Assembly: GCA_947499555.1 (NCBI GenBank)
Contig: CANMOU010000001.1
Location: forward strand, 1,514,165-1,578,164
Origin: an uncultured Roseovarius sp.
Lineage (GTDB): Bacteria > Pseudomonadota > Alphaproteobacteria > Rhodobacterales > Rhodobacteraceae
Length of the DNA: 64,000 nucleotides
Direction of reading: 5' to 3'
Shown here: in pieces, positions 19,509 to 37,420 of the stretch
Numbering within the stretch: the first letter of the stretch is position 1
How the letters are laid out: every line of letters starts with the position of its first letter
Notes under the pieces: generated by a model
Databases searched by the model: none
What the model saw: only the letters and a program-made list of their open reading frames with translations
Told to the model about the DNA's origin: nothing
Program-made: the position numbers and the translations under genes

Positions 19509-19585
19509 GGTCCCGTAGCTCAACTGGATAGAGCAGCTGACTTCTAATCAGCAGGTTGAGGGTTCGAGTCCTTCCGGGATCGCCA
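19509..19585 (+). tRNA. tRNA-Arg (anticodon TCT)
   Basis: A 77-base cloverleaf: acceptor GGTCCCG pairs with CGGGATC (one G-U pair), D-arm TAGCTCAACTGGATAGAGCA, anticodon arm GCTGA-CTTCTAA-TCAGC with TCT at 19543-19545, T-arm with GGTTCGAGTCC, and an encoded 3' GCCA. It reads AGA codons. Confidence 0.97.
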
Positions 19586-19890: not shown

Positions 19891-21261
19891 TTACGACAAC
19901 ACGCGTTCAATCGCCAGTCTGGTTTTGCCAACGATTTCATCCGCCTCGGCTTCGCTGAGGCAAAATGGTGGGGCAAACCCGATGATGTCGCCTTGGGGCA
20001 TCGCCCGGGCGATTACGCCCATATCTGACATGGCGGCGGCTATATGAGGACCAACTTTGTCGACAGGATCAAAGAACGCACGTTCTTCACATTCGCGCAC
20101 CAGTTCGACGGCGCATAACATGCCCTCTCCGCGCACCTCTCCCACATGTGGATGATCGGCCAGCGCATCTTTCATGTGCACTGTCAAATAGCGCCCAACC
20201 GCACCGGCATTGGTGATCAGGTCAAGCGCATCAAGCAGTTTCAGATTGGCAACCCCGGCGGCGGCTCCAATCGGGTGTGCGGAATAGGTCCATCCATGTC
20301 CGATTGGGCCATTTTCATCCGTGCCTTGCTCCAACACACGCCACATCCGGTCACTCACAATACTGCCTGACAGGGGCGCGTAGGCGCTGGTCAGCCCCTT
20401 GGCGATGGTGATGAGATCGGGTTTGATCCCGTAGTGATCCGAACCAAACATGCTACCCAGACGTCCAAAACCTGTCACGACCTCATCAGCGATCAACAGG
20501 ATATCATGCTTGTCGAGAACCGCTTGAATGGCGGGCCAATACCCTTCAGGCGGCGGGACAATCCCGCCTGTACCCAAAACCGGCTCACCGATAAAGGCGG
20601 CGATGGTATCAGCACCCTCCTGTGCGATGAGGTCTTCCAGCTTGGTAACGCAATGGGCCACGAATTCAGCTTCGGTTTGGTCCTGGTCAGCCCGGCGGAA
20701 GTAATACGGGGCTTCTGTGTGAACGACCTGGCCCAAAGGCAGATCAAATTTCTTGTGAAAGAGCTCCAGACCCGTCAGCGAGCCGGTCATCAGCCCCGAG
20801 CCATGATATCCACGCCAGCGGCTGATGATCTTCTTCTTTTCGGGACGTCCCAAGATGTTGTTGTAATACCAGATCAGCTTGATGTTCGTCTCGTTCGCGT
20901 CACTGCCCGACAGTCCAAAATAGACTTTACTCATATGCTCAGGGGCGCGATCCAGGATCATCTTGGAGAGGGTGATACTGGCCTCGGTCCCATGCCCGAC
21001 ATAGGCGTGGTAATAGGCCAATTCCTTGGCTTGCTCGGCGATCGCTTCGGCAATTTCCGGGCGACCATAGCCCACATTCACACAATAAAGACCGGCAAAG
21101 GCATCCAGATGTTCATGACCCGCGCGATCTACGATATAACATCCCGACCCGCCGGTGATCACTCGCTGAGCCAGATCACCTCGGGCAAACTCCGCCAGAT
21201 GGGTTGAGGGATGGAAAAAGTTTTCGCGATCCCATTGCTCCAGCAGATCATTTTTCAGCAT
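19891..21261 (-). CDS. Class III pyridoxal-phosphate aminotransferase
   Basis: A 456-residue fold-type I, class III aminotransferase. [23 protein letters not shown] and [17 protein letters not shown] are cofactor and substrate-pocket motifs, [19 protein letters not shown] holds the PLP-binding aspartate, and [17 protein letters not shown] holds the Schiff-base lysine. The family moves amino groups from omega-amines such as diaminobutyrate, GABA, putrescine or taurine. As the last gene of the reverse arm of the island it would fit the place of DoeD, the diaminobutyrate transaminase of ectoine breakdown, but substrate cannot be told from sequence. The gap to the EutC-like gene is 84 bases. Confidence 0.88.
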
Positions 21262-21345
21262 CTTTGAAACTCCCTGTCCCTCTTAGGGCCTCTTTGTTGA
21301 ACCTTGACGGGCATGCGCCCCTCAAGAGCCGCTCAAATATGTGTG

Positions 21346-22338
21346 TCAGCTCTTGATTGTCGTGCCATTCCCAGCGACCTCCGCCCTCTGGCGCGCCAGC
21401 GTTGCAACGGCCGTGTCCTGCACACCGGTTCCAGTCAGATCGCAAACGGTCAGGCTGCTTGTCGCGTCGTAGGATGGCAACGCTCCTGTGATCACGTCGC
21501 CAAGCTCCTGATACGGTGCGTCACCTGGCACAAGACCGGCGGCAATTGCGGCGCGCAGCTCGCCAAGAACTTTGGTCTGGGACAAGCGGTCCGGCACATA
21601 GTGATCCGCCGCAGCAATCAGCGCCGGATCAATTTCGCATTTGTTGTCCTGATCAGAGCCAATGGCGATCACTAGTTGACCCTGTTTGAGGTGTCCCTTC
21701 AGGACGAGCGGCGCTTTTGAAGGGGTCGTGGTGACGATCATATCTGCCGCTTGGGTCGCTTCGCTGATTTTTTGAGCGACGGATGCATCGACGCTTAACT
21801 CATTCGCAATGTCCTGTGCCGCGTCCTGAGCCTTTTCGGCGTCGCGTGCCCAAACCGTCACATGGCTGAGCGGACGCACCAGATGAATGGCTTCTGCTTG
21901 TAACCGGGCCTGCGCGCCGGCGCCGATGACACACAGACGAGAGGCCTCCGCGCGTGCCAGGTGGCGGGCGGCCACTGCACCTGCCGCGGCGGTGCGAACC
22001 TCGGTCAGATAGCCGTTGTCCAGCAGCACCGCCTCGACCTGTCCGGTTTTGGCCGAAAAGACGACCATGATGCCATTTGTCGACGGCAAGCCCATGGACG
22101 GATTATCATAAAATCCCGGAGACATCTTGACGGTAAAGCTCTCGGCCCCATGGATATGGGCGGTTTTGATATCAATCTCACCGTTGTTTTCGTGAATGCC
22201 CATAGACACGATTGGTGGCATTTCCACGCTACCACCGGCCAGAGCAGCAAAACCTTGTTCGATGCAATCAACAAGCGACAGATCCAGCGGCACCAGCGCC
22301 CGCAGTTCGGTTTCGGTCAATATCTTGATATCAGGCAT
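21346..22338 (-). CDS. eutC: EutC-like ornithine cyclodeaminase/mu-crystallin family protein
   Basis: A 330-residue NAD(P)-binding protein of the ornithine cyclodeaminase family: MPPIVSMGIHENNGEIDIKTAHI near residue 45, PSMGLPSTNGIMVVFSAKTG near residue 82, and Rossmann motif VIGAGAQARLQAEAI near residue 128. In hydroxyectoine users the homologue EutC is paired with the EutB dehydratase. Here the EutB-like gene is directly upstream and overlaps the start by 8 bases, so the pairing is kept. Start at 22338 (MPDIKILTETELRAL) preferred; a longer frame into eutB is rejected. Delta1-pyrroline-type or imine reduction is the family chemistry; exact substrate inferred. Confidence 0.82.
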   Translation of the reverse strand: MPDIKILTETELRALVPLDLSLVDCIEQGFAALAGGSVEMPPIVSMGIHENNGEIDIKTAHIHGAESFTVKMSPGFYDNPSMGLPSTNGIMVVFSAKTGQVEAVLLDNGYLTEVRTAAAGAVAARHLARAEASRLCVIGAGAQARLQAEAIHLVRPLSHVTVWARDAEKAQDAAQDIANELSVDASVAQKISEATQAADMIVTTTPSKAPLVLKGHLKQGQLVIAIGSDQDNKCEIDPALIAAADHYVPDRLSQTKVLGELRAAIAAGLVPGDAPYQELGDVITGALPSYDATSSLTVCDLTGTGVQDTAVATLARQRAEVAGNGTTIKS

Positions 22339-23323
22339 TGTTTTCCCCCGCCGTGACGTCCACATCCTCGCCAGATACAATTCGGTGATGCAACGCCATG
22401 TCAATGTTTCCACCGCTCAACAGCAGTGCGGTTTCGCCATCGGGTCTCACTTTGCCTGCAAGCAGGGCCGCAATACCGACCGAGCCTGACCCTTCAATAA
22501 TCTGGTGTTCATGCCAATAGGCATGACGGATTGCGGCGGCAATCTCTACCTCGCTGACCAAAACGATGTCGTCCACCAAATCCCGCGTCATTTGAAACGT
22601 GTAGGCATTATCAAGCCCAATGCCCCCACCCAGACTGTCCGCCAGGGTCGAAAGCTCTGGCACCATGATCGGTTTGCCAGCTTTCTGGCAGGCATACATG
22701 GCCGCACCACGCTCCATCGAGACACCGATGACGCGGATATCGGGACTACGCGCCTTTAACGCGGCGGCGACGCCAGAAACCAAACCTCCGCCGGAAAGCT
22801 GCACCAGAACGGTGGACAAGTCGGGCACATCCTCAATAAGCTCCAGACCAAGCGTGCCTTGCCCGGCAATGATGTCGGGGTGATCAAAGGGCGGGATCAT
22901 CGTCATCCCGTCTTCTGCCACTAACCGGTCCACTTCGATCTGCGCGTCATCCTGGCTTTGCCCGATGATGCGGACCTCTGCGCCCTGGGCGCGAATTCCG
23001 TCGATCTTGTTTTGCGGTACCAGTTGGGACATGGCCACAATGCAGCGCACGTCGTTTTGCCGGGCCGCAAAGGCCAGACCACGTCCATGGTTGCCCGTGG
23101 ACACACCGACCACACCTTTCGCGCGCTGATCATCTGACAGGTTCAGAATGGCATTTGTCGCACCACGGATTTTGAACGATCCTGTGCGCTGCTGGTGCTC
23201 CAGTTTCAGATGCACCGGGACGCCCGCTGTCGTGCTCAGGCTTTCGGAGTGTTCGGTTCTGGTGCGATGAATTGTGCTGGCAATTCGGGCTTGCGCTGCC
23301 TCGATATCTGCAACACCGATCAT
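22331..23323 (-). CDS. eutB: EutB-like threonine/serine dehydratase family enzyme
   Basis: A 330-residue fold-type II PLP enzyme. The Schiff-base lysine is in RTGSFKIRGATNAI (about residue 53), GVSTGNHGRGLAFAARQN is the cofactor region, and QLSGGGLVSGVAAALK is the phosphate-binding glycine loop. It belongs to the threonine dehydratase group that includes EutB, the hydroxyectoine utilisation dehydratase, which removes water/ammonia from a beta-hydroxy amino acid. The overlap with the EutC-like gene downstream and with the Rieske gene upstream (4 bases) shows tight coupling. Start at 23323 (MIGVADIEAAQARI). Confidence 0.82.
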   Translation of the reverse strand: MIGVADIEAAQARIASTIHRTRTEHSESLSTTAGVPVHLKLEHQQRTGSFKIRGATNAILNLSDDQRAKGVVGVSTGNHGRGLAFAARQNDVRCIVAMSQLVPQNKIDGIRAQGAEVRIIGQSQDDAQIEVDRLVAEDGMTMIPPFDHPDIIAGQGTLGLELIEDVPDLSTVLVQLSGGGLVSGVAAALKARSPDIRVIGVSMERGAAMYACQKAGKPIMVPELSTLADSLGGGIGLDNAYTFQMTRDLVDDIVLVSEVEIAAAIRHAYWHEHQIIEGSGSVGIAALLAGKVRPDGETALLLSGGNIDMALHHRIVSGEDVDVTAGENNA

Positions 23324-24495
23324 TCTGCCACCTTGGAAGCGGGAGCCGCTGGCGCTGTGAGCATCCTTGCCAGATAGCGTTGGAATTCCCAAATGGTCTG
23401 CTCTTTTGGTGAGAGGCGCCCCGGCTGCGCCGACAGGGCCGCGGCATTACGCGCGATGGCCGACGTGATTGGTTTGTCCTCGTCATTGATCGCGTGAAAG
23501 CTGGCCTTCAGCTCGTCCACACGCTCGTCAAATTCCGCGCCTTGCGGCATGGCGTCAGGGTGAACATCAACGCCCCAAAAGACGCGCACTTTGTCCGTTT
23601 CAACCGGCATCAGGGACATCCAGAACGTCCGCTCGGCCGACACAGACGCCATCTGCGCCGGAAACGCGCCAAAGAGCGGCACGCTGTTGACCTCATCCTC
23701 GGTCAACTTCGGATTGGGGTTTGCCATTGCTTCGCTATATTCAAACGCCACGCCGGGATTTCGCCCTTGTGTATATAGGCAATAGCCCGGACCGCCGGTC
23801 ACGACATGGGCGTGTTGGGTGGGTAGAACTGGCTCAACAGTTTTGCTGTGCACGGCAAACAAGTGGTAAGGCTCCATGAAATTCTGAAAGAGAATTTTCC
23901 AGTTGGTGTCCCAAATTTCATCAACCCGAAACAAGGTGCGATAACTCTCGACATCATAGTTGGCCAGAAGCTCTGTCAAAGGCGCCAATCGCGGCGCCAA
24001 AGGCTTTGCCAAAGGGTCGAGATTGACGTAAACCCAGCCCAGCCATTCTTCGACGGCGAATTGCGGCAAATGACAGTCTCTCTTGTCGAAGTTGTCCCGC
24101 ATATGGGCCGCCCCGATCAGCTGGCCATCCAATGTGTAGGTCCAGGCATGGTAGGGACAGGTGATTTTGCCACCAATGGTACCCTCGCCCTCAAGCAGAC
24201 TCATCATCCGGTGGCGGCAAATATTGGACATTGCGCGCAACACACCATCATGGTCGCGCAGGATGATGACCTCATCGCGGCTGATGGTCATCACCCGGTA
24301 ATCGCCGGGCTGTTCGAACTCATCCGAACGACCCACACAAATCCATTCCCGATTGAAGATCACATCCCGTTCCAGTTCGAGAAACGCCTGCGATGTATAG
24401 ACTTGGGGTGGTGTCGCCTCGGACTGATCTTCGGGCAAAGAGGCATTCGCGGACACCGCATCGAGCAATTCGGAAAGTGGCATATTGGGCTGCAT
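23320..24495 (-). CDS. Rieske non-haem iron oxygenase, alpha subunit
   Basis: A 391-residue ring-hydroxylating-type oxygenase. The Rieske cluster ligands are C93-R-H95 and C113-P-Y-H116 (CRHRMMSLL ... ITCPYHAWTYTLDG). The mononuclear iron site is in NWKILFQNFMEPYHLFAVH, with H211 and H216. This subgroup is the one that includes betaine, carnitine and stachydrine monooxygenases that N-demethylate or cleave small quaternary amines, as well as others; which one cannot be told. No reductase gene is in the window, so electrons must come from a partner elsewhere. Not part of the standard ectoine pathway. Confidence 0.88.
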   Translation of the reverse strand: MQPNMPLSELLDAVSANASLPEDQSEATPPQVYTSQAFLELERDVIFNREWICVGRSDEFEQPGDYRVMTISRDEVIILRDHDGVLRAMSNICRHRMMSLLEGEGTIGGKITCPYHAWTYTLDGQLIGAAHMRDNFDKRDCHLPQFAVEEWLGWVYVNLDPLAKPLAPRLAPLTELLANYDVESYRTLFRVDEIWDTNWKILFQNFMEPYHLFAVHSKTVEPVLPTQHAHVVTGGPGYCLYTQGRNPGVAFEYSEAMANPNPKLTEDEVNSVPLFGAFPAQMASVSAERTFWMSLMPVETDKVRVFWGVDVHPDAMPQGAEFDERVDELKASFHAINDEDKPITSAIARNAAALSAQPGRLSPKEQTIWEFQRYLARMLTAPAAPASKVAE

Positions 24496-24511
24496 GACAG
24501 GACCTCAATCG

Positions 24512-25711
24512 CTAGGTTTGGCGCGCGTGAGACAATCGCGTCGTGAGCTTGCGCAGAAAATCCAACCCCTGCGCCAGTTCTTCGACTTCAATATATTCAT
24601 CGGCCTTGTGGGCCCGGCTGATGTCGCCGGGACCAAAGACGACGGTCGAATAATCGGCATCACTGAAATACCCCGCATCAGTCCCGAATGAAACCACACC
24701 GGTGTCGTTCAACCCCGTAATCGCGCTCACAAATTCCGCCGCACGCGCTGCGTTGCGATCATCAAGCGGCGGAACGGCGATTTCGGTAATTATCCGGATC
24801 TCCGCCGTGTCGCAGACGGCCCGCATAGCTGGCAGGATGTCCTGTGCGGCAAAGGCTTCGATCTCGGAAATCGCAAGGGATCCGTCCTCGCCCGGCATCG
24901 GACGGTATTCCCAATCGAAGTTGCACCAACCGGCAGTCGCGTTTCGGGCCGCGCCACCTTCTATCGTGCCAACATTGAAGGTGGGGTAAGGCGGGCTGTA
25001 AAACGACCCTTTGACAGGGCTGGCCGCACGTTGCGCGTTCATTTCTTCGATCTTCGAGATCAGTTTCATCGCCGCCGAGATTGCGTTGACGCCTCGCCTT
25101 GGGTCGCAAGAATGCGCCTCTTGCCCTTTGATTTCCGTGCGCATCTCATAGCCGCCCTTATGGCCGGTCACGATCTTCATCTGCGTCGGTTCGCCGACAA
25201 TGACGATCTCGGGGCGATAGGCAAACCCCGACAGGCTTTCGAGCAGGACGGGCATCCCCAGCCCGCCGGTTTCCTCGTCAAAGGTAAATGCGATATGAAT
25301 TGGCTTGGTCAGGGGTGCGGCTTTGAACACAGGCACCGAGGCCAGAACACAGGCCAGAAACCCCTTCATATCAACCGAACCGCGTCCATAAAGCCTGTTG
25401 CCTTTGCGGGTCAGCTTGAAAGGATCGCTGGACCAGTCCTGACCCTCTACCGGGACAACATCTGTATGTCCGTTCAAGACGACCCCGCCGTCGATTTCTG
25501 GCCCTATCGTCGCGAAGATGTTCGCGCGCTCTTTTGTCTCGTCAAAACTCAGAGTGGATGAAATGCCATGCTGTGTCAGATAATCCTGAATATACCCGAC
25601 AATACCATGGGTCGGGCGGCCCGAAACGCTCTCAAAGCCCACCAGAGCCTCAAGAATATCTATGGCCGCATCCAGTGTTTGGGGCAGGACTGCATCCTCA
25701 GACGGCATCAT
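24512..25711 (-). CDS. ArgE/DapE-type M20 amidohydrolase (acetylornithine deacetylase-like)
   Basis: A 399-residue zinc peptidase of family M20. Metal-site motifs are VVLNGHTDVVPVEG (His, Asp), YGRGSVDMKGFLA (bridging Asp), FTFDEETGGLGM (Glu-Glu), and FGPGDISRAHKADEYIEV (His). ArgE-type members cleave N-acyl groups from amino acids such as N-acetylornithine. In this island it could deacylate an N-acyl diamino acid, the job done by the unrelated AspA-type deacetylase DoeB/EutE in known ectoine pathways; this is inference. Two ATG codons (25711, 25708) both overlap the GntR stop. Confidence 0.85.
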   Translation of the reverse strand: MMPSEDAVLPQTLDAAIDILEALVGFESVSGRPTHGIVGYIQDYLTQHGISSTLSFDETKERANIFATIGPEIDGGVVLNGHTDVVPVEGQDWSSDPFKLTRKGNRLYGRGSVDMKGFLACVLASVPVFKAAPLTKPIHIAFTFDEETGGLGMPVLLESLSGFAYRPEIVIVGEPTQMKIVTGHKGGYEMRTEIKGQEAHSCDPRRGVNAISAAMKLISKIEEMNAQRAASPVKGSFYSPPYPTFNVGTIEGGAARNATAGWCNFDWEYRPMPGEDGSLAISEIEAFAAQDILPAMRAVCDTAEIRIITEIAVPPLDDRNAARAAEFVSAITGLNDTGVVSFGTDAGYFSDADYSTVVFGPGDISRAHKADEYIEVEELAQGLDFLRKLTTRLSHARQT

Positions 25712-26406
25712 GGTTCGGCCAGCAGTCGACCAAGAAGGGTCAACATCCGCTGAAGATCGATGCTGCGGTAGTGCCCAACACTGCGAATGTCATTGTCCAC
25801 CATGGCCGCCCGGATTTCTTCTAACTCGTTGAGCTGACCGGCATGCGCCTTGTCCCAACCGAACTGAGGAAGAAACGTGTACCAAATGCGCGCCACCCGG
25901 TAATACATCAGCTCGGTGATCTCACAGAGCGGCGCATTGCCCGTCAGATTGGACAGTAACTGTTGCAGATCATTCGCGATGAGGGCCAGTTCATCAAAGG
26001 ACCCTGTTTTGTCGGCCAGATTCCGGGTGCGGTTAACCAACGCGTCTATCGTAGCGATATGATCCGGCGTGATTTCAACCGGCGACAGCTCTCCCATCAT
26101 TTCAGCCAGACGTTTGCGCAGGTCATAAATCTGTTTGAAGGTCTTCAGATCAATGTCGGTCACCATTGTGCCAACGCCATTCTTGATCGTCACCAGCCCC
26201 ATGAACTCAAGCCGGTGAAAGACCCGGCGGATCGGTGTGCGGCTGATACCGAACTCTTTGGCCAGCGCCCCCTCGCTCAGCACGGTTCCGGGTGGATAGG
26301 TCAACAGGCAGATCCGGTCCCGCAACTCGCAATAGATCCGGTCAAACCGTTCAGCGCCGGTTTCGTCTTCTGATACGGCAATAGCCGTCTCGGCTATTTT
26401 GACCAT
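25708..26406 (-). CDS. GntR-family transcriptional regulator (FCD type)
   Basis: A 232-residue regulator: winged helix-turn-helix at residues about 20-90 (TVLSEGALAKEFGISRTPIRRVFHRLEFMGLVTIKNGVGTMV) and a C-terminal all-helical ligand-binding FCD-like domain with possible metal-binding histidines (Asn/His in NDIRSVGHYRSIDLQ). It is first in the reverse arm and lies opposite the EutA-like gene across a 125-base gap that contains the palindrome CTGTATACAG. It is unrelated to EnuR, the MocR-type regulator of most ectoine clusters. Confidence 0.88.
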   Translation of the reverse strand: MVKIAETAIAVSEDETGAERFDRIYCELRDRICLLTYPPGTVLSEGALAKEFGISRTPIRRVFHRLEFMGLVTIKNGVGTMVTDIDLKTFKQIYDLRKRLAEMMGELSPVEITPDHIATIDALVNRTRNLADKTGSFDELALIANDLQQLLSNLTGNAPLCEITELMYYRVARIWYTFLPQFGWDKAHAGQLNELEEIRAAMVDNDIRSVGHYRSIDLQRMLTLLGRLLAEP

Positions 26407-26513
26407 CGGCTTCCCCCGGTTGAGGTTTCTGCGTTTCGCGCGATTGCATTGTGCGCGGAGTCATCTCCCATTGACACGACTCAGCTTTAGGGGCGAGCAT
26501 AGCTAAAATCAAG

Positions 26514-26523
26514 CTGTATACAG
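26514..26523. promoter_or_regulatory. Candidate GntR operator in the divergent promoter
   Basis: A perfect 10-base palindrome CTGTATACAG lies 8 bases before the ATG of the EutA-like gene. Palindromes with a TGTATACA core are typical of FadR/FCD-type GntR proteins, and the GntR gene is divergent here. A TTGACA hexamer occurs at 26471-26476 but without a well-spaced -10. Confidence 0.5.
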
Positions 26524-26531
26524 GCTATGCC

Positions 26532-27323
26532 ATGACAGATGTCTTCCAAACAGCGGAAACGACAAGGTTTCAAAGCACTTCGGTCTGCGATGACATTGCG
26601 CTTGATGAGGGCACTGGGAAGTATCGGATCGGGCTGATCGTTCTCAGCAACGATTACACGGTTGAACGCGATTTCATGAACATGCGGCCAAACAATGATG
26701 TCGCGATATTTACCACACGGATTGCTAACACACCCGACTGCAACGTCCACTCCTTGCGGAAAATGGCACCAGGGATTGCAGACGCGGCAAAGCTTTTGGT
26801 GCCGGAGGGGCACCTGAGCACAATTGCCTACGCGTGCACATCAGGCTCTGTGGTGATCGGCTATGAAGCCATTTGCACCCACATCAATTCCGTTCGTCCC
26901 GAAGCAACCTGCATCACACCGATCACCGCATCGCTGGCCGCACTTGATGCGTTTGGGGCACAAAAGCTTGCGGTTCTGACGCCCTATGTGGATGAGGTCA
27001 ATGCGGTCATTGCCGACTATCTGCGAGCCGCGGGCAAGCAGATCTGCGCCTTTTCGTCATTTCTTATCGAAGACAACGAAGACATGGCTGCTCTCACCGG
27101 TGAGGCGATTTTCCAGGCGGCCGTAAAGTCCGACAGACCCGAGGCAGATGCCCTGTTCATTTCCTGCACTGCGATCCGCGCGGTCGAGGTTATCGACCGG
27201 ATAGAACAAGCCTTGGGCAAACCGGTTGTCACTGCCAATCAGGCCATGTTCTGGCAGACCCTTCGGGCTGCGGGCTGTGACGCCAGCGTAGAGGGCTATG
27301 GCAAGTTGTTGCGTCAGTTTTAG
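26532..27323 (+). CDS. eutA: EutA-like Asp/Glu racemase-superfamily protein
   Basis: A 263-residue protein of the Asp/Glu racemase, maleate isomerase and arylmalonate decarboxylase superfamily. The two catalytic cysteines are in AYACTSGSVVIGYE (about residue 100) and LFISCTAIRAVEVID (about residue 218); YRIGLIVLSNDYTVERDF opens the first subdomain. The hydroxyectoine gene eutA encodes a member of this group thought to act on the stereocentre of the hydroxylated substrate. It is first in the forward arm. Maleate isomerase is the main alternative; the neighbouring eutB/eutC/doeA homologues favour a EutA-like role. Confidence 0.78.
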   Translation: MTDVFQTAETTRFQSTSVCDDIALDEGTGKYRIGLIVLSNDYTVERDFMNMRPNNDVAIFTTRIANTPDCNVHSLRKMAPGIADAAKLLVPEGHLSTIAYACTSGSVVIGYEAICTHINSVRPEATCITPITASLAALDAFGAQKLAVLTPYVDEVNAVIADYLRAAGKQICAFSSFLIEDNEDMAALTGEAIFQAAVKSDRPEADALFISCTAIRAVEVIDRIEQALGKPVVTANQAMFWQTLRAAGCDASVEGYGKLLRQF

Positions 27324-27344
27324 CCGGGTTTTTGGGAGCATGCG

Positions 27345-28226
27345 ATGAACCACAATGAGATATTGTCCAACCCTCCTCGGGTTCTCAGCCAGGACGAGCG
27401 GTCCTTTTATTTCGAACAAGGCTACGTCGTAAAAGAGAAGGCTGTCGGACAGGATTGGCTGGATCGACTGAATGCGGCCATGGCGGCCCTGGTAGAGACA
27501 ACTCGCAGCATGACATGCTCAACCCAGACCTATGATCTGGACGCGGGCCACACAGCCGAAAACCCCAGACTGCGCCGCATTGCCTATCTCGATGATCTCG
27601 ATCCGGTGTTCTGGGACTTTTGCAAGGATTCACCCCTCACTGATCTGGCCGCTGATCTGCTTGGTCCGAACGTCCGGTTTCGCGAATGCATGATTAACTT
27701 CAAATGGGCCGGGGGCGGTCAGGAGGTTAAGTGGCATCAGGATTTTCCCTTCTACCCGCTGACCAATACGACTGTGGCGCAGTTCCTTGTCTGTCTCAAC
27801 GATGTTGGCCCCGATCAAGGCCCTTTGCAGGTTGTCCCCAAAAGCCATGAGGGGCCGTTCTATGACCACTATGATCAGGACGACAATTGGCTGGGCTACA
27901 TCCAGGACGACAAGCTGGCCGAGGCAGGGCTGGACACGGCGGTGGACTTAACCGGACCTGCAGGCACAATCACCGTGCATCACTGCGCGACCTTGCACGC
28001 CTCTCGCGCTAATCTGAGCAAGCTGGGTCGCCCGGTGCTGATTGTCACCTACTGCGCCTGCGACGCGGTTGGATACACAGCCGTGACCTATCCCTCGTCG
28101 AACTGCCTCAAGGTCGTGCGCGGCCAGGAAACGAAATTCGCCCGGCTGGAGCCGATGAACATGCGCATGCCACCAGATTGGTCCGATGGCTACACCTCCA
28201 TCTTTGACCATCAGGAAGAGGCCTAA
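27345..28226 (+). CDS. Phytanoyl-CoA dioxygenase-family 2-oxoglutarate/Fe(II) oxygenase (first of two)
   Basis: A 293-residue PhyH-family protein. The iron triad is H131-x-D133 (VKWHQDFPFYPL) and H218 (HHCATLHASRANLS), and the 2-oxoglutarate arginine is R229, exactly 11 residues after the distal histidine as in human PhyH. It lacks the ectoine hydroxylase EctD signature around its WHxD motif, so it is not EctD. It may hydroxylate or oxidatively dealkylate a small substrate early in the pathway. It is separated from the EutA-like gene by 21 bases and from the DoeA-like gene by 3. Confidence 0.85.
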   Translation: MNHNEILSNPPRVLSQDERSFYFEQGYVVKEKAVGQDWLDRLNAAMAALVETTRSMTCSTQTYDLDAGHTAENPRLRRIAYLDDLDPVFWDFCKDSPLTDLAADLLGPNVRFRECMINFKWAGGGQEVKWHQDFPFYPLTNTTVAQFLVCLNDVGPDQGPLQVVPKSHEGPFYDHYDQDDNWLGYIQDDKLAEAGLDTAVDLTGPAGTITVHHCATLHASRANLSKLGRPVLIVTYCACDAVGYTAVTYPSSNCLKVVRGQETKFARLEPMNMRMPPDWSDGYTSIFDHQEEA

Positions 28227-28229
28227 ACT

Positions 28230-29405
28230 ATGGCACCACCGTTTTCCCGCGAAGAATACGCGGACCGACTGACCCGCGTCCGAAATGCCATGCAGTCTAA
28301 AGAGCTGGATGCCCTAGTGATTGGTGATCCGACCAATATCAACTGGCTGACGGGATATGATGCCTGGTCGTTCTACACCCCGCAGATCATGGTGGTCGGT
28401 CTGGAGCTTAACCCAACCTGGATGGGTCGTGAAATGGATGCGGGAGCGGCGGCATTTACAACGTATTTACCACCCGAACAGTTGGTTCCCTTCCCCGAGA
28501 CGCATGTGCAACAGGCAGAGTTTCACGCCGCTCAGTATATGGGCGACTGGATGAAATCGAAGGGGCTGAATCGCAAGCGCATCGGTTATGAAAGTGACGT
28601 CTATTTCCTGACGCCGGCGGCGGTCGGGCATTTGATGGGCCGCTTGCCTGACAGCGACTGGAGCGATTGTGGCTTGCTCGTGAACTGGCAACGCCTGACC
28701 AAGAGCCCCGCTGAGATAGCAATGCTGCAACAGGCTTCGGTCATTGCGGGCAAAGCCATGCAGACGGCCTATGACGGCGTGCGACCGGGGGTGCGGCAAT
28801 GCGATCTGATGGCGGATGTCGTGGCCGCTCAGATTCGCGGCACGCCGGAGTTTGGCGGGGACCAAACCGCCCTGCACCCGCTGGTTCTCGCCGGAGAGGC
28901 GGCCTCGACCGCCCATCCGATGTGGACCGATGTGCCGTTTGAGAAGGACCAGACCATCGCCTTTGAGCTGGGCGGGTGTCGCAAACGCTACAATGCGGGC
29001 CTGGCGCGCACTGTGCATCTGGGCGAGCCACCAAAGATATTGATGGACACCGCCAAAGCCGTGGGCGAAGGCATGGATGAAGTTCTATCCGCCATGAAGG
29101 CCGGGGCACTGTGCTGTGATGTACATGCCGCATGGCAGGCGGTTCTGGATCAATACGGTCTCGAGAAGAAAAGCCGCATCGGCTATTCGATTGGTCTTGG
29201 GTATTCGCCAGACTGGGGCGAGCACACGATCAGCTTCCGTCCCGATGACAGCACCGTACTGCCGGAAAACGCCGTGGTGCATATCATTTTGGGGATGTGG
29301 ATGGACGGCTGGGGCATGGAATTGAGCGAGACAATCCATGTGCGCGCCAATGATGCAGTGTGCCTCACGCAATTCCCGCGCGACGTTCACGTGATCGACG
29401 TGTGA
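28230..29405 (+). CDS. doeA: DoeA/EutD-like ectoine hydrolase (M24 family, metal-free type)
   Basis: A 391-residue creatinase-fold protein. Segments such as NWLTGYDAWSFYTPQ, LLVNWQRLTKSPAEIAML, AFELGGCRKRYNAGLARTVH and PDWGEHTISFRPDD match the ectoine hydrolase DoeA/EutD closely. The aspartates that bind metal in M24 peptidases are replaced (E246 and G258 in FELGGC...AGLART) as in ectoine hydrolase and creatinase; E246 sits where the catalytic glutamate of Halomonas EutD is expected. The enzyme would open a tetrahydropyrimidine or similar C-N ring. Whether the substrate is ectoine itself is open, because the rest of the cluster differs from standard ones. Confidence 0.8.
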   Translation: MAPPFSREEYADRLTRVRNAMQSKELDALVIGDPTNINWLTGYDAWSFYTPQIMVVGLELNPTWMGREMDAGAAAFTTYLPPEQLVPFPETHVQQAEFHAAQYMGDWMKSKGLNRKRIGYESDVYFLTPAAVGHLMGRLPDSDWSDCGLLVNWQRLTKSPAEIAMLQQASVIAGKAMQTAYDGVRPGVRQCDLMADVVAAQIRGTPEFGGDQTALHPLVLAGEAASTAHPMWTDVPFEKDQTIAFELGGCRKRYNAGLARTVHLGEPPKILMDTAKAVGEGMDEVLSAMKAGALCCDVHAAWQAVLDQYGLEKKSRIGYSIGLGYSPDWGEHTISFRPDDSTVLPENAVVHIILGMWMDGWGMELSETIHVRANDAVCLTQFPRDVHVIDV

Positions 29406-29418
29406 AAGGAAAAAAGAC

Positions 29419-30246
29419 ATGGGAAAAAAGCTCACCCAAGCCCAGACCGACGCCTTCCACCGGGATGGGTTCGTTTCTCCCATAGATGTATTCTCCGAGG
29501 CCGAGGCCCTGCGCCTGCGCAAGGAACTTGAAGCCGCCGAGGCAAAATGGCCCGAAGCTTTTCAGGGGGCTGCGCGCAACAACGCGCATCTGAACCTGAT
29601 GTGTCTAGATGAGATCGTGCACAACCCGGTGCTTGTGGATGCAATTGAGGATCTCATCGGGCCTGACATCCTCAACTATGGAACGGTATTGTTCATCAAA
29701 GAACCCAACGATCCGGGCTTTGTCAGCTGGCATCAGGACGCACGTTACATGGGGTTGGAACCTCATGTCGGCATCACCGCCTGGGTCGCTCTGACAGAGG
29801 CCAATGATGAGAATGGCTGCATGCAGATGATCCCCGGCAGCCACGGAGAGATCAGAGACCACAACGACACGTTTGGCGAAGAAAACATCCTGACGCGCGG
29901 GCAAGAAGTAGAGAACGTGGATGCAAGCACGGCTGTGTCCACGGCCTTGCGCCCCGGTCAGATGTCGATTCACAGCGCCCGGGTCATTCACAGTTCACAA
30001 CCCAACCGCAGCAATGACCGGCGCATCGGCTTTGTCATTCAGCCTTTCATGCCCCCCCATGTGCAGCAGATGATCACACCAACAGGCGCGCAACTTGTAA
30101 GGGGCAGCGATCCGTTTGGAAACTTTGAACACCTGCCCCGTCCCACATCCGATATGGATCCCAGTGATATCAAAAAACGCGATTGGGTGAATGAAACCTG
30201 GTCAGACATCCTCTATCATGGCGCCAAGATGCGACGAGATTATTAG
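29419..30246 (+). CDS. Phytanoyl-CoA dioxygenase-family 2-oxoglutarate/Fe(II) oxygenase (second of two)
   Basis: A 275-residue PhyH-family protein with H105-x-D107 (FVSWHQDARYMGL), distal H191 (RVIHSSQPNRSNDRRIG) and 2-oxoglutarate arginine R202, again 11 residues apart. The phrase GCMQMIPGSHG is the conserved double-stranded beta-helix turn. It is only distantly similar to the first PhyH protein of the island, so the two probably act on different intermediates. AAAGGAAAAAAGAC precedes the ATG. Last gene of the forward arm. Confidence 0.85.
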   Translation: MGKKLTQAQTDAFHRDGFVSPIDVFSEAEALRLRKELEAAEAKWPEAFQGAARNNAHLNLMCLDEIVHNPVLVDAIEDLIGPDILNYGTVLFIKEPNDPGFVSWHQDARYMGLEPHVGITAWVALTEANDENGCMQMIPGSHGEIRDHNDTFGEENILTRGQEVENVDASTAVSTALRPGQMSIHSARVIHSSQPNRSNDRRIGFVIQPFMPPHVQQMITPTGAQLVRGSDPFGNFEHLPRPTSDMDPSDIKKRDWVNETWSDILYHGAKMRRDY

Positions 30247-30882: not shown

Positions 30883-32073
30883 TTACATCAGCGCCTCAAA
30901 GAGCGCGCGCGTGTTCGACGCCGTCATCTCAACAGGATTGCCTCCGGTGCTTGGATCCCGCAATGCCGCATCGACAAGGCTGTCAATATCGGGGTCTTTG
31001 ACACCCAGCTCTGTCAAAGTTTTTGGTATGCTCATCGCAGCGTTAAGCTTGTCCACATAGCGGCAAAACCCGTCGAACCCTCCGTCTATATCGAGATAGG
31101 CCGCGACCGACGCGAACCGGTCTCTGATGGCATCGGCATTGAATTTCAGGACGGCAGGCATGCAGACCGCGTTGGTTGTTCCGTGATGCGTATGATGCAT
31201 CGCGCCAATAGGATGGCTAAGTGCGTGGATTGCCCCGAGGCCTTTTTGAAAGGCCGTCGCCCCCATCGCCGCAGCGCTCATCATGTTCGCGCGTGCTTCG
31301 ATATCTGTGCCATCCTCGTACGCCCGGGGCAGATAGTCCTTTACGAGGCGCATTCCTTCCAGCGCGATGCCCTGGCTCATTGGGTGATAATGCGGCGAGC
31401 TATAGGCCTCGACACAATGCGCAAAAGCGTCAAGACCGGTGCCAGCGGTGATGAACCTCGGCATGCCAACGGTCAGCTCCGGATCGGCAATGACCACGGC
31501 AGGGAGCATTTTGGGATAGAAGATAATCTTCTTTTCCTGGCTGGCAGAATTTGTGATCACACTTGCGCGCCCCACCTCCGAACCAGTGCCGGCTGTGGTC
31601 GGCACCGCCACAACAGGCGCAATACCGTCCGGATTGGCGCGGGTCCACCAATCGCCGATATCCTCAAAATCCCAGATCGGTCGGGTTTGGCCGGCCATGA
31701 ACGCAATCACTTTGCCAAGATCAAGACCTGAGCCACCGCCGAAGGCGATGACGCCGTCAAAACCACCTTCGCGGTAGGCTTGCACCCCGGCCTCGGCATT
31801 CTTGTCTGTCGGGTTTGGATCAACTTCAGCAAATAGCGCCTTGCCCAGCCCGGCCTTGTCCAGCAATGACAACGTGCGGGTTGTGATCTCGTTCTCAGCA
31901 AGGCCCCTGTCCGTTACCAATAGGGGCTTTTTTATGCCAGCCGCTAAGCAGGCATCGGCAATCTCGGCAATACGCCCTGCGCCAAAACGGATTGGGTTGG
32001 GGTAGCTCCAGTTCGCGGTCAGTGTCATGGCATCACCTTCTTCCAGATATGGGGCGTTCTGTGTCTCATTCAT
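30883..32073 (-). CDS. Iron-containing (group III) alcohol dehydrogenase
   Basis: A 396-residue Fe-ADH. FGGGSGLDLGKVIAFM is the NAD(P) loop, PTTAGTGSEVGRASVIT the conserved hinge, and the iron ligands are in GTGLDAFAHCVEAYSS (Asp, His) and IHALSHPIGAMHHTHHGTTNA (two His). It would reduce an aldehyde or oxidise an alcohol made by the upstream genes. ATG at 32073 overlaps the ligase stop (ATGA); an internal ATG at 32028 with AGAAGG upstream gives the more usual N-terminus (MTLTANWSYPNPIRFG). Last gene of the reverse operon starting at the amidohydrolase. Confidence 0.9.
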   Translation of the reverse strand: MNETQNAPYLEEGDAMTLTANWSYPNPIRFGAGRIAEIADACLAAGIKKPLLVTDRGLAENEITTRTLSLLDKAGLGKALFAEVDPNPTDKNAEAGVQAYREGGFDGVIAFGGGSGLDLGKVIAFMAGQTRPIWDFEDIGDWWTRANPDGIAPVVAVPTTAGTGSEVGRASVITNSASQEKKIIFYPKMLPAVVIADPELTVGMPRFITAGTGLDAFAHCVEAYSSPHYHPMSQGIALEGMRLVKDYLPRAYEDGTDIEARANMMSAAAMGATAFQKGLGAIHALSHPIGAMHHTHHGTTNAVCMPAVLKFNADAIRDRFASVAAYLDIDGGFDGFCRYVDKLNAAMSIPKTLTELGVKDPDIDSLVDAALRDPSTGGNPVEMTASNTRALFEALM

Positions 32074-33428
32074 GCTTTCTCGAAACCACGGGCAATTTCC
32101 CAGTCGGTCACGACGCGATCAAATTCTTCCTGCTCCCATTCTGCCGCGCGTGTGTAATGGTCGATGACGTAATCGCCCATGGCCTCGCGGAGCATTCTGG
32201 ATTGGCGCAGACTTACAGTTGCGGCGCGCAATGTGTTGGGGATCTCCGGCACGGTGGTGTCTTCATACATGTCGCCAGTCGCAGCCGGGGCGAGGTCGCG
32301 CTCTTCTTCAATACCTTTCAACCCGGCGGCCAATAGCGCGGCCTGCGTCAGATACGGATTGATGTCCGAGCCGGGAATGCGGCACTCGATCCGCACCGAG
32401 CTGGTGTCTGCACCGCATAGCCGAAACCCGGCCGTGCGGTTATCGACGGACCAGGCCGATTTGGTCGGCGCGAAGGTGCCTTTGACAAAGCGCTTATAGG
32501 AATTGATGTATGGCGCGAAGAAATAGGTACAATCTGCGGCATAAGCGATCAGACCCGCCACAAAATGGCGCATGGTTTGTGACATGCCATATTCGCCTTC
32601 TGGGTCATGAAATACATTCTTTCCATCGGCCCAGAGCGACATATGCACATGGCTAGCGCTGCCCACACGGTCATGATGCCATTTTGGCAGGAAACTTGCG
32701 GAATGACCCTGCTGCCAAGCGATTTCCTTGGTGGCATGTTTCGCAATCGTATGGTGATCGGCACAGGCAAGTGCCGCGGCATATTTGATGTTAAGCTCTT
32801 CCTGGCCCACCTCGGCTTCACCTTTCGAATTCTCAATGGGCACCCCGGCGGCATAGAGGTAATTGCGCAAGGGGCGCATCACATACTCTTCCTTGGTGGT
32901 CTGCAGGATGTGGTAATCCTCGTTATAAGGCCCCAGCGTCGCTAGGTCGCGGTAGTTTTCGGCGCGCAACTCATCGAGGGGCTTCTTGAACAGGAAAAAC
33001 TCAAGCTCGGTGGCCATCATCGGTGTTAGGCCATGCTTGGCTAGCCGTGCAATTTGCTCTTTCAGGATCTGGCGTGGCGCATGGGGCACTGGGGCATGTG
33101 TGTGATGATCGAGAATATCGCAAAGCACCATCGCCGTACCTTCCAGCCAAGGCATGGGCCGCAGGGTGCTCAGATCGGGCTTCATCACATAGTCGCCGTA
33201 ACCTGCCTGCCAACTGGTCGACGCATAGCCATCGGGCGTCGCCATCTCCAGATCAGTGGCCAAGAGGTAATTGCAGCAATGCGTCTCTTCATGACCGCTT
33301 TCGAGGAAGTTTGAGACGTGAAACCGCTTGCCCATCAAACGGCCTTGCATATCCACGAGACAGACAAGAACGGTGTCGATTTCACCCGACGCCGCTGCGG
33401 CCTTCAATGTATCAAAAGAGAGGGTCAT
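32070..33428 (-). CDS. Glutamine synthetase-family gamma-glutamyl ligase
   Basis: A 452-residue GS-fold enzyme. Metal and ATP motifs: TELEFFLFKK (Glu), GEAEVGQEELNIKYAAAL (Glu pair), SASHVHMSLW (His), YINSYKRFVKG (Asn/Arg region), VRIECRIPGSDINPYL (Glu, Arg). It is shorter than and differs from GlnA in the adenylylation loop; the resemblance is to PuuA/GlnA4-like enzymes that join glutamate to an amine (putrescine, ethanolamine, methylamine). Amine acceptor unknown. It sits between dctP and the Fe-ADH in one operon; a gamma-glutamylated route of amine breakdown is plausible. Confidence 0.85.
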   Translation of the reverse strand: MTLSFDTLKAAAASGEIDTVLVCLVDMQGRLMGKRFHVSNFLESGHEETHCCNYLLATDLEMATPDGYASTSWQAGYGDYVMKPDLSTLRPMPWLEGTAMVLCDILDHHTHAPVPHAPRQILKEQIARLAKHGLTPMMATELEFFLFKKPLDELRAENYRDLATLGPYNEDYHILQTTKEEYVMRPLRNYLYAAGVPIENSKGEAEVGQEELNIKYAAALACADHHTIAKHATKEIAWQQGHSASFLPKWHHDRVGSASHVHMSLWADGKNVFHDPEGEYGMSQTMRHFVAGLIAYAADCTYFFAPYINSYKRFVKGTFAPTKSAWSVDNRTAGFRLCGADTSSVRIECRIPGSDINPYLTQAALLAAGLKGIEEERDLAPAATGDMYEDTTVPEIPNTLRAATVSLRQSRMLREAMGDYVIDHYTRAAEWEQEEFDRVVTDWEIARGFEKA

Positions 33429-33463
33429 TCACTGCTGCCTAATATCTCAGAGTAGAAGGACGC

Positions 33464-33526
33464 GCCCTCGGAGCTTTCCCGAGGGCCTCCCATTTTCTGG
33501 ATGCCCCGGATTGGAGCCGGGGCATC
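33464..33526 (-). terminator. Two tandem hairpins between dctP and the ligase gene
   Basis: On the reverse strand, a 10-bp perfect stem GATGCCCCGG / CCGGGGCATC (33500-33526) starts 7 bases after the dctP stop, followed by an 8-bp stem GCCCTCGG / CCGAGGGC (33464-33486). Neither has a U-tract, so they more likely stabilise the dctP message or cause partial termination than end the operon fully. Confidence 0.65.
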
Positions 33527-33532
33527 TGGAGA

Positions 33533-34564
33533 TCAGCCGTACCGATATGGTCGTCCGGCCTTTTGCATATCTGCGTTATATTTCCGGAAAATATCGACGA
33601 TCTTGGCCTTGGTCTCGGACTCCGCGGCGATCTCGTCCCAGAATTTGACGGCTGCCTCCTCGACCTGCGCCCATTCTTCGTCGGGGATTGAGGTCAGCTT
33701 CATCTTCGTGCCGTTCACACGCAGATTGGCCTCGCCGCCCCAATACCACCATTGACGGTAGTAGTGGCTTTGTTCCATGCAGACGCCCAGAAGCGCCTGA
33801 AGATCCTCGGGAAGCTCATTCCAGCGATCCATATTGGCAAAGAAATGACCGATCCAGGCACCAGAGATGTTGTTGGTCAGGAAGTAATCCGTCACATCCG
33901 CCCAACCCACAGTGTAGTCCTCGGTGATGCCGGACCAGGCGATGCCGTCAAGCTCACCGGTTTGCACCGCGACCTCGATGTCCTCCCAAGGCAAGGTGAC
34001 CGGCACCACACCAAACTGCGACAGGAAGCGGCCCGCCGTTGGGAAGGTAAAGACACGTTTGCCTTTGAGATCTTCAAGGCTGTTGATCGGGTCTTTGGTT
34101 GCGAAATGGCACGGGTCCCAGGCCCCTGCCGAGATATGCTTGACGCCGACCTTGGAATACTCGTCATCCCAGATTTCCTTTAGCCCGTACTGATTGAACA
34201 GAACCGGTACATCGAGCGAGTAGCGCGAGCCGAAGGGGAAATAGCCGCCAAAGACGGTGACTTCGGTCGGTGACGCCATGGAGTCGTCATCCGACTGCAC
34301 CGCGTCAATCGTGCCGCGTTGCATAGCCTGGAAAAGCTCTCCGGTTGGAACAAGCTGATCTGCGAAGAACAATTCGATCTGCATGCGGTCGCCCGCGATC
34401 TTGTTAAAAGTTTCAATCGCCGGAACAACAACCTCCGCCGCCAGGGCCGCACCTGCATAGGTTTGCATCCGCCAGGTGATGGTCGATTGAGCCAAAGCCG
34501 GTGTGGCAAGAGCGGCAGGCGCGGCAACAGCGGCGGCTTTGATAAACTTACGTCTTGTGGTCAT
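33533..34564 (-). CDS. dctP: TRAP transporter solute-binding protein (DctP type)
   Basis: A 343-residue periplasmic binding protein with a Tat-type signal (MTTRRKFIKAAAVAAPAAL, cleavage near ALAQ). FADQLVPTGELFQAMQRGTID, KDPINSLEDLKGKRVF and GELDGIAWSG are DctP-family motifs; the last normally includes the arginine region that binds a carboxylate. AAGGAG lies 8 bases before the ATG at 34564. It provides ligand specificity for DctQ and DctM encoded just upstream. The ligand is probably a carboxylate or amino-acid-like solute used by the surrounding enzymes. Confidence 0.9.
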   Translation of the reverse strand: MTTRRKFIKAAAVAAPAALATPALAQSTITWRMQTYAGAALAAEVVVPAIETFNKIAGDRMQIELFFADQLVPTGELFQAMQRGTIDAVQSDDDSMASPTEVTVFGGYFPFGSRYSLDVPVLFNQYGLKEIWDDEYSKVGVKHISAGAWDPCHFATKDPINSLEDLKGKRVFTFPTAGRFLSQFGVVPVTLPWEDIEVAVQTGELDGIAWSGITEDYTVGWADVTDYFLTNNISGAWIGHFFANMDRWNELPEDLQALLGVCMEQSHYYRQWWYWGGEANLRVNGTKMKLTSIPDEEWAQVEEAAVKFWDEIAAESETKAKIVDIFRKYNADMQKAGRPYRYG

Positions 34565-34618
34565 TTTGATGTCTCCTTGTTGGTACTCGATTGGTCTCAA
34601 TGCTTCTTTTGTTGATGA

Positions 34619-37286: not shown

Positions 37287-37351
37287 CCCGCCCTCCACTG
37301 AAGATTTTTCTTCAAGGCCCTCATAGCTGTCAAATGTTTTTTGATGAATTA

Positions 37352-37378
37352 TTTTACATCCTCCGCCATTATGTAAAA
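37352..37378. promoter_or_regulatory. Candidate RpiR operator (inverted repeat)
   Basis: TTTTACAT at 37352-37359 and ATGTAAAA at 37371-37378 form perfect 8-base inverted arms 11 bases apart, midway in the 134-base gap between the amidohydrolase and the divergent RpiR gene. The centre-to-centre distance is about two helical turns, suiting a dimeric regulator. Confidence 0.6.
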
Positions 37379-37420
37379 AATCGCCCATGTGCTGGGCACT
37401 TGATCTTTGAAAGGTTTGGC

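What the first reader, a model, noticed from the sequence alone, without database searches (positions are those of the whole stretch)
19891..30246. Variant ectoine-type catabolic island with oxygenases not known from ectoine clusters
Seen: one divergent cluster of ten genes around a GntR regulator encodes homologues of EutA, EutB, EutC and DoeA/EutD and a class III aminotransferase, plus a Rieske oxygenase, an M20 deacylase and two PhyH dioxygenases. Known: described roseobacter/rhizobial clusters hold ueh/ehu transporters, eutABCDE, asnC, ssd and an aminotransferase, regulated by the MocR-type EnuR. Here the usual deacetylase (DoeB/EutE), EnuR, AsnC and transporter are missing and three oxygenases have been added. 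Inference: the substrate is a modified ectoine or another cyclic, N-substituted solute that needs oxidative trimming before ring hydrolysis.
Basis: partly seen in the sequence, partly recalled or inferred. Interest (0 to 1): 0.8.

Follow-up and report, generated by a model that had tools for sequence, protein, structure and literature searches.

The report
Oxidative variant of ectoine breakdown cluster
A marine bacterium carries ten tightly packed genes that look like the known pathway for eating the salt-protectant ectoine but with its own ring-opening enzyme and three oxygen-using enzymes, and rearranged relatives in other bacteria suggest it breaks down an unidentified, probably N-methylated, relative of hydroxyectoine.

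Summary
The ten genes are there as described (window 19891-30246): GntR-M20-Rieske-EutB-EutC-aminotransferase, divergent from EutA-PhyH1-DoeA-PhyH2, mostly overlapping or under 25 bases apart. All ten recur in three other Roseovarius-group genomes (EutB split in two of them); shorter versions occur elsewhere. The DoeA-like protein ('DoeA1') lies outside the characterised EutD clade (p-AU 0.0005; EutD model 391 against cut-off 613), while EutB, EutC and the aminotransferase group with copies that stand beside ordinary EutD. None of the four full-island genomes has a DoeB/EutE over cut-off, so M20 is the likely deacylase. Two rearranged relatives are informative. Type C (three genomes) keeps EutA, PhyH1, M20 and EutB beside a second hydrolase (DoeA2), with a dimethylglycine-dehydrogenase-like N-demethylase and no Rieske gene. 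Type B (three genomes, one contig cut) has no EutB/EutC; two hold an L-threonine aldolase. None of 21 loci holds both N-demethylase candidates. Best reading: an O2-dependent branch of ectoine-type catabolism that removes an N-methyl or similar group, opens the ring, deacylates, and ends in a beta-hydroxy-diamino acid of the hydroxyectoine kind. The substrate is not shown. Observation confirmed; interpretation partly supported; new variant of a known kind.

The parts
19891..21261 (-). class III aminotransferase (PRK07482 type), last gene of the left operon
   Evidence: 823 bits, cut-off 687; groups with aminotransferases that stand next to EutD in other Roseovarius-group genomes
21346..22338 (-). 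EutC-like imine reductase / ornithine-cyclodeaminase family (ORF listed from 22413)
   Evidence: PRK08291 473>408, TIGR02992 461.5<471.65; with EutC of L046 (EutB-EutC-EutD cluster), support 99
22331..23323 (-). EutB, PLP-dependent dehydratase (ORF listed from 23392)
   Evidence: TIGR02991 522>413; SFKIRGA and SGGGL motifs; in an 8-row set (97) with EutB of hydroxyectoine clusters
23320..24495 (-). Rieske non-haem iron oxygenase, nearest solved relative carnitine monooxygenase CntA
   Evidence: CxH-CxxH at 93, NWKILFQNFMEPYH-H at 198 with Glu as in CntA
24512..25711 (-). M20 N-acyl-amino-acid deacylase (acetylornithine-deacetylase-like), presumed substitute for EutE/DoeB
   Evidence: TIGR01892 363>297.7; 7rsf E 1e-51; no EutE over cut-off in the genome
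25708..26406 (-). GntR-FCD regulator (not MocR/EnuR)
26514..26524 (.). candidate operator CTGTATACAGG between GntR and EutA
   Evidence: present in all 6 Roseovarius-group intergenic regions aligned, CTGTGTACAGG in L058, not seen in L060; pattern CTGTRTACAGG once in the genome, the backward control also once
26532..27323 (+). EutA-like Asp/Glu-racemase-superfamily enzyme with two cysteines (C102, C212) at the places of those in ordinary EutA
   Evidence: clade of types A/B/C support 0.999
27345..28226 (+). PhyH1, Fe(II)/2-oxoglutarate dioxygenase; fold of amino-acid hydroxylases and EctD, no EctD signature
   Evidence: clade of types A/B/C support 0.992
28230..29405 (+). DoeA1, M24-family hydrolase related to ectoine hydrolase, separate clade; Glu246 aligns with Halomonas DoeA Glu255
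29419..30246 (+). PhyH2, second Fe(II)/2-oxoglutarate dioxygenase; nearest solved relative ThoJ (6zyk)
   Evidence: 126 bits, E 1.5e-35; name ThoJ

Best explanation
The island is an oxygen-dependent branch of ectoine-type catabolism. Shown: gene content, tight operon structure, conservation, family membership and two replacement patterns. Inferred: the Rieske oxygenase removes an N-methyl (or similar N-alkyl) group, with PhyH1 and PhyH2 adding one or two hydroxyls; DoeA1 opens the cyclic amidine-like ring through the conserved glutamate; M20 removes the N-acyl group in place of EutE; EutA adjusts stereochemistry; the resulting beta-hydroxy-diamino acid (hydroxyectoine's 3-hydroxy-2,4-diaminobutyrate or a close analogue) is dehydrated by EutB, reduced by EutC and transaminated by the class III aminotransferase towards aspartate. 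In two type B clusters an L-threonine aldolase would cut the same beta-hydroxy amino acid to glycine and an aldehyde; in type C clusters a dimethylglycine-dehydrogenase-like enzyme would do the N-demethylation. The substrate is therefore most likely an N-alkylated relative of (hydroxy)ectoine. The local GntR-FCD protein presumably controls both operons.
Against: No substrate, product or expression evidence. Enzyme families allow several chemistries: the Rieske match to CntA is only 133 bits, both PhyH proteins are far from characterised ones, and EutABC chemistry is itself unproven; one published proposal has EutABC act on the intact hydroxyectoine ring (PMC5924519, passage), not on the free amino acid. 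Threonine-aldolase replacement rests on two clusters of one type, and six of the nine Rieske loci are one genus; whole genomes were not searched for the missing partner. The M20 tree does not recover types A/B against C: type B joins C at 0.674. PhyH2 orthologues (77-79%) also stand in clusters with a betaine transporter or with a luciferase-like monooxygenase and a hydrolase, so PhyH2 is not specific to this pathway. DUF1989 and an AtzE-like amidase in AG-343-N19 could point to a guanidine- or urea-type substrate. No transporter is linked in the window.
Confidence: 0.5

Rival explanations
1. It is simply the host's cluster for ordinary ectoine/hydroxyectoine: M20 replaces EutE, and the oxygenases are accessories (for instance EctD-like hydroxylation so that all substrate flows through EutABC).
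Against: G028 (R. albus) and G052 hold a complete ordinary cluster with EutABCDE and TRAP transporter (L145, L045) and also island-type modules, so these are unlikely to be redundant. DoeA1 is outside the EutD clade, PhyH1 lacks the EctD signature, and the host has a EutD of the ordinary clade elsewhere (L051, 585 bits, just under the cut-off 613).
Confidence: 0.22
2. The substrate is an N-methylated amino acid or betaine without an ectoine-type ring (for instance an N-methylated imidazole amino acid); DoeA1 works as a creatinase-like or other C-N hydrolase.
For: M24 enzymes include creatinase (distant match 1chm). PhyH2's nearest solved relative ThoJ belongs to a family acting on bis-N-methylated histidine. 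PhyH2 orthologues stand with an OpuAC-type betaine transporter, a dimethylglycine-dehydrogenase-like enzyme, an M24 protein, EutA- and PhyH1-like genes in L062 and L065. An OpuA-type permease stands beside DoeA2 in G009.
Against: DoeA1 is far closer to ectoine hydrolase (305 bits) than to creatinase (30 bits), and it is coupled to hydroxyectoine-type EutB/EutC/AT.
Confidence: 0.18
3. The cluster makes rather than breaks down a modified amino acid (a small biosynthetic cluster with Rieske and 2-oxoglutarate oxygenases).
For: PhyH2 scores weakly against chlorinating enzymes (92 bits, cut-off 226) and is nearest to ThoJ, a natural-product enzyme; aldolase and oxygenase pairs are used in natural-product pathways (recalled).
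Against: No carrier protein, ligase or exporter among the ten genes; hydrolase-deacylase-dehydratase-reductase-aminotransferase logic is that of the catabolic cluster; the ABC transporter beside the AG-343-N19 cluster has a substrate-binding protein, an uptake type.
Confidence: 0.05

Closest known systems
[quoted passage not shown]
   Same: EutB, EutC, aminotransferase and an M24 hydrolase with the glutamate of Halomonas DoeA; a EutA homologue
   Different: DoeA1 in its own clade, EutA under cut-off, EutE replaced by M20, GntR-FCD in place of EnuR, no AsnC, Ssd or transporter in the island, three oxygenases added
putative eutD clusters of Bacillota with abgB-thrA-adh (PMC13188858)
   Same: no eutE, an amidohydrolase in its place, often a second eutD
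   Different: no Rieske or dioxygenase is mentioned in the main text (term search); different taxa, gene order and regulator (PucR)
quaternary-ammonium Rieske monooxygenases (CntA carnitine, GbcA glycine betaine)
   Same: Rieske and mononuclear iron motifs with a Glu where CntA has one
   Different: 133-136 bits only; no reductase gene in the island
dimethylglycine dehydrogenase/oxidase (type C clusters only)
   Same: nearly full-length FAD-GcvT architecture
   Different: not in the window; its substrate here is unknown
ThoJ/TsaJ histidine beta-hydroxylases of thioamitide biosynthesis (for PhyH2)
   Same: best solved match of PhyH2, 126 bits
   Different: those act on a peptide in a biosynthetic pathway; same function not tested
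EctD ectoine hydroxylase (for PhyH1)

Membership tests
ectoine/hydroxyectoine catabolic cluster | EutD/DoeA ectoine hydrolase (TIGR02993, cut-off 613) in the characterised clade | tested here: not met
   391 bits; separate clade, p-AU 0.0005 for DoeA1 plus canonical as one clade (group named after seeing an earlier tree)
ectoine/hydroxyectoine catabolic cluster | glutamate nucleophile of DoeA (Glu255, role recalled) | tested here: met
   invariant at window Glu246
ectoine/hydroxyectoine catabolic cluster | EutE/DoeB deacetylase (TIGR02994, cut-off 402.7) | tested here: not met
   best 60 bits in the whole genome
ectoine/hydroxyectoine catabolic cluster | EutB (TIGR02991) | tested here: met
   522.4 against 413.35; clade
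ectoine/hydroxyectoine catabolic cluster | EutC (TIGR02992) | tested here: inconclusive
   461.5 against 471.65, but PRK08291 passed and grouped with a EutC beside ordinary EutD
ectoine/hydroxyectoine catabolic cluster | EutA (TIGR02990) | tested here: not met
   234 against 318; both cysteines kept
ectoine/hydroxyectoine catabolic cluster | EnuR (MocR/GabR type) regulator in the cluster | tested here: not met
   GntR plus FCD domain, no aminotransferase domain; the rest of the genome was not searched for EnuR
ectoine/hydroxyectoine catabolic cluster | growth on ectoine or hydroxyectoine through these genes | not testable with these tools
   needs mutants
EctD ectoine hydroxylase (for PhyH1) | 17-residue signature FxWHSDFETWHxEDG(M/L)P | tested here: not met
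   PhyH1 has VKWHQDFPFYPL at this place (signature from PMC5924519); TIGR02408 50.6 against 336.5
quaternary-ammonium Rieske oxygenase | CxH-CxxH Rieske site and Glu in the NWKxxxxNxxExYH motif | tested here: met
quaternary-ammonium Rieske oxygenase | N-demethylation or C-N cleavage of a quaternary amine | not testable with these tools
   GbcA equivalog 136 against 670
beta-hydroxyaspartate cycle (BhcB/BhcD) | BhcB and BhcD equivalogs | tested here: not met
   211 against 550 and 165 against 500

The most novel reading that the evidence does not exclude
The island and its type B and C relatives are interchangeable builds of one undescribed aerobic pathway for a natural N-methylated hydroxyectoine-like osmolyte (or its cyclic guanidine analogue) in seawater, with two ring hydrolases (DoeA1, DoeA2), two alternative N-demethylases (Rieske, dimethylglycine-dehydrogenase-like) and two ways out (EutB/EutC or threonine aldolase).
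Probability: 0.3. Interest if true: 0.8.

Novelty: new variant of a known kind. Interest (0 to 1): 0.6.

Why it matters
If right, nature holds an ectoine-type compound that I found in no paper of the held library, and bacteria from Roseovarius to the single-cell genome AG-343-N19 (oceanic origin recalled) carry a dedicated, modular pathway for it. It also bears on an open question: the exact reactions of EutA, EutB and EutC are unknown (PMC8739950), with published proposals ranging from the intact hydroxyectoine ring (PMC5924519) to hydroxy-ADABA and hydroxy-DABA (PMC13188858). Clusters that have a threonine aldolase and no EutB/EutC favour a free beta-hydroxy-alpha-amino acid. It warns that DoeA-like proteins fall into at least three clades.

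Tried and rejected
Neighbouring genes 30883-38284 (iron alcohol dehydrogenase, glutamine-synthetase-like, TRAP transporter, N-formylglutamate-amidohydrolase-like, RpiR regulator) as part of the island: rejected, because the 8-9 kb read on the PhyH2 side of the full islands in L035-L037 do not hold them.

Island as a compositional or tRNA-inserted foreign element: GC 0.55-0.60, its right flank 0.53-0.58; a tRNA-Arg lies at 19509-19585 but no tRNA was found in any of 12 related loci. No conclusion on mobility.

A wider regulon through the operator: the pattern CTGTRTACAGG occurs once in the genome and its backward control also once, so no transporter was found this way; the orphan DoeA2 has no such site in the upstream stretch printed (by eye).

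DoeA1 and DoeA2 always occurring together: rejected; among 85 genus genomes a close DoeA2 (84-100%) is in 3 (G000, G052, G009), and 3 of the 4 full-island genomes lack it.

Spread of island PhyH1: besides the window's genome, 0 of 384 class, 1 of 393 family (65%, AG-343-N19; one more at 48% beside a TRAP transporter) and 0 of 397 phylum genomes had a close match (drawn samples, partly the same genomes, different E-limits). So the pathway is rare.

beta-hydroxyaspartate cycle and EctD membership: rejected (membership table). Literature: one held paper has ectoine, Rieske and phytanoyl-CoA dioxygenase together, on Novosphingobium genomes, seen in the listing only; no paper with an N-methyl-ectoine term among the 11 found (listing); 6ZYK not found; homarine and dimethylglycine-dehydrogenase searches showed nothing like this cluster in the top 10 of 214 and 12 of 25 (listings). 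These cover the held open papers only; the primary EutD paper was not held, so its active-site facts are recalled.

Structure models: PhyH1 was good; the Rieske model was poor (mean pLDDT 54) and was not used. Foldseek against the PDB was not run.
Full report
Observation. The window (G000:C1:1514165-1578164 of a 3.73-Mb genome) holds the ten genes at the stated places. Named relatives of the same genus group are Roseovarius (the contig lengths of L055, L056, L057 and L068 equal those of G008, G028, G027 and G052, from which I equate them). The family assignments hold, with these reservations: only EutB, the M20 enzyme and the aminotransferase clearly pass curated NCBIfam cut-offs; EutC passes one of two models; EutA and DoeA miss theirs; the PhyH, Rieske and GntR proteins match only distant NCBIfam models.

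Conservation. DoeA1 orthologues of 80% or more are in 8 of 120 genomes searched, the window's own included; all 8 are in its genus group (72 of the 120); the next match is 44%. The full set of ten is in the window, G032, G055 and G008 (EutB is in two pieces in G032 and G055). R. albus (L038) has seven, MMSF_3359 (L040) six, G052 (L039) DoeA1 and PhyH2, G046 (L041) DoeA1 alone. A PhyH2 scan of genome contigs gave 24 loci: 8 have DoeA1 next to PhyH2 and 6 of these the Rieske gene; L070 and L077 have DoeA1 in the locus but not adjacent; the other 14 carry PhyH2 in other or cut-off settings, among them a luciferase-like monooxygenase plus alpha/beta hydrolase (L061, L064, L066) and an OpuAC-type betaine transporter cluster (L062, L065).

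Type B. Anderseniella (L058), Neomegalonema (L060) and, on a short contig, Granulosicoccaceae (L067) carry Rieske, DoeA2, M20, DoeA1 and PhyH2; L058 and L060 also GntR and an L-threonine aldolase; EutA and PhyH1 are in L058 only; none has EutB or EutC in the stretch held. The aldolase misses two NCBIfam aldolase cut-offs but is a Beta_elim_lyase and matches solved L-threonine aldolases.

Type C. G052 (L141), G009 (L143-L144) and AG-343-N19 (L148-L070, which one search places in the window's family as G501) carry M20 and DoeA2 divergent from GntR, a dimethylglycine-dehydrogenase-like protein, a second EutB-like gene, EutA, PhyH1 and EutB; EutC is in G009 and AG-343-N19, the aminotransferase in AG-343-N19. 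AG-343-N19 also has PhyH2, DoeA1, DUF1989, an AtzE-like amidase and a peptide- or nickel-type ABC transporter with binding protein. Of the 21 loci tabulated, 9 have the Rieske gene, 6 the demethylase (L070 and L148 are one contig, L062 and L065 are betaine-type clusters), none both, 6 neither (some of these cut by contig ends). Whole genomes were not searched for the other one.

Trees. DoeA1 (12 rows) is a clade at 99, DoeA2 (6) at 100, canonical EutD with Halomonas 6TWK at 100 for 13 of 14 rows; DoeA1 plus canonical as one clade is rejected (p-AU 0.00045). Twelve of 49 rows, all of the canonical and DoeA1 groups, had been left out before that tree to thin it, and the outgroup branch is very long. 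The host's orphan gene at C1:805565 is a DoeA2. EutC groups with L046 (99), the aminotransferase with copies beside EutD (96), EutB in an 8-row set (97) that also holds three ordinary copies, L047 and type C; its place inside that set rests on forks of 86 and 92. PhyH1 and EutA of types A/B and C are each one supported clade (0.992, 0.999, FastTree). In M20, type C is a clade (0.999) but type B joins it weakly (0.674), so this tree does not show the same division.

Literature. PMC13188858 was seen in abstract, sections 3 and 8, part 1 of 2 of section 9, and term passages; PMC5924519, PMC8739950, PMC5320631 and PMC8153245 in passages. They state that EutD opens both ectoines, that EutE acts on the ectoine product and possibly on the hydroxylated one, that EutABC are needed for hydroxyectoine in R. 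pomeroyi, and that the EutABC reactions are proposals. PMC13188858 describes eutE-less clusters with an amidohydrolase and second eutD in Bacillota, the nearest published parallel that I found.

Reading. Two replacement patterns constrain the chemistry: Rieske against dimethylglycine-dehydrogenase-like enzyme suggests removal of N-methyl, and EutB/EutC against threonine aldolase suggests a beta-hydroxy-alpha-amino acid. With hydroxyectoine-type EutB/EutC/aminotransferase this points to hydroxyectoine-like carbon. Both patterns rest on few independent clusters and the second on two. I put 0.5 on this reading, 0.22 on an ordinary ectoine cluster, 0.18 on a non-ectoine N-methylated substrate, 0.05 on biosynthesis.

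Noticed in passing
window 30883-38284: A separate cluster: iron alcohol dehydrogenase, glutamine-synthetase-like protein, TRAP transporter, N-formylglutamate-amidohydrolase-like protein (name recalled) and RpiR regulator; no equivalog cut-off is passed by the five of these proteins scanned.
   Followed up: partly
L148 1203-20000 and L070 (AG-343-N19): About 20-gene cluster with three EutA-like, two PhyH1-like, two DoeA, one further M24, DUF1989, an AtzE-like amidase and an enolase-superfamily gene (name recalled) beside a peptide- or nickel-type ABC transporter.
   Followed up: partly
L062 340-10828, L065 434-10828: Another cluster type: OpuAC betaine ABC transporter, M24, GntR, PhyH1-like, EutA-like, dimethylglycine-dehydrogenase-like protein and PhyH2 (77-78% to the window's).
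   Followed up: partly
L061, L064, L066, also L075 and L076: PhyH2 near a luciferase-like monooxygenase and an alpha/beta hydrolase, from Roseovarius to Actinomycetota MAGs.
   Followed up: no
G000:C1:805565-806743 (L052 9063-10244): Orphan DoeA2 between housekeeping genes (lpxB- and mnmA-like, names recalled); close relatives only in G052 and G009 among 85 genus genomes.
   Followed up: partly
L035 16149-17209 and L036 3332-4392: EutB of the island is split into two overlapping ORFs at the same place in G032 and G055; M20 in L035 and PhyH1 in L036 are split too: frameshifts or assembly errors.
   Followed up: no
L079 and L080 (Shinella plasmids): M24 proteins 50% identical to DoeA1, sister clade to it, next to DUF1989 or EutA and an M20-type amidohydrolase.
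   Followed up: partly
L047 774-10737 (G014): An ABC transporter with a binding protein resembling that of AG-343-N19 stands directly upstream of EutB-EutC-EutD, an unusual transporter choice for an ectoine cluster.
   Followed up: no
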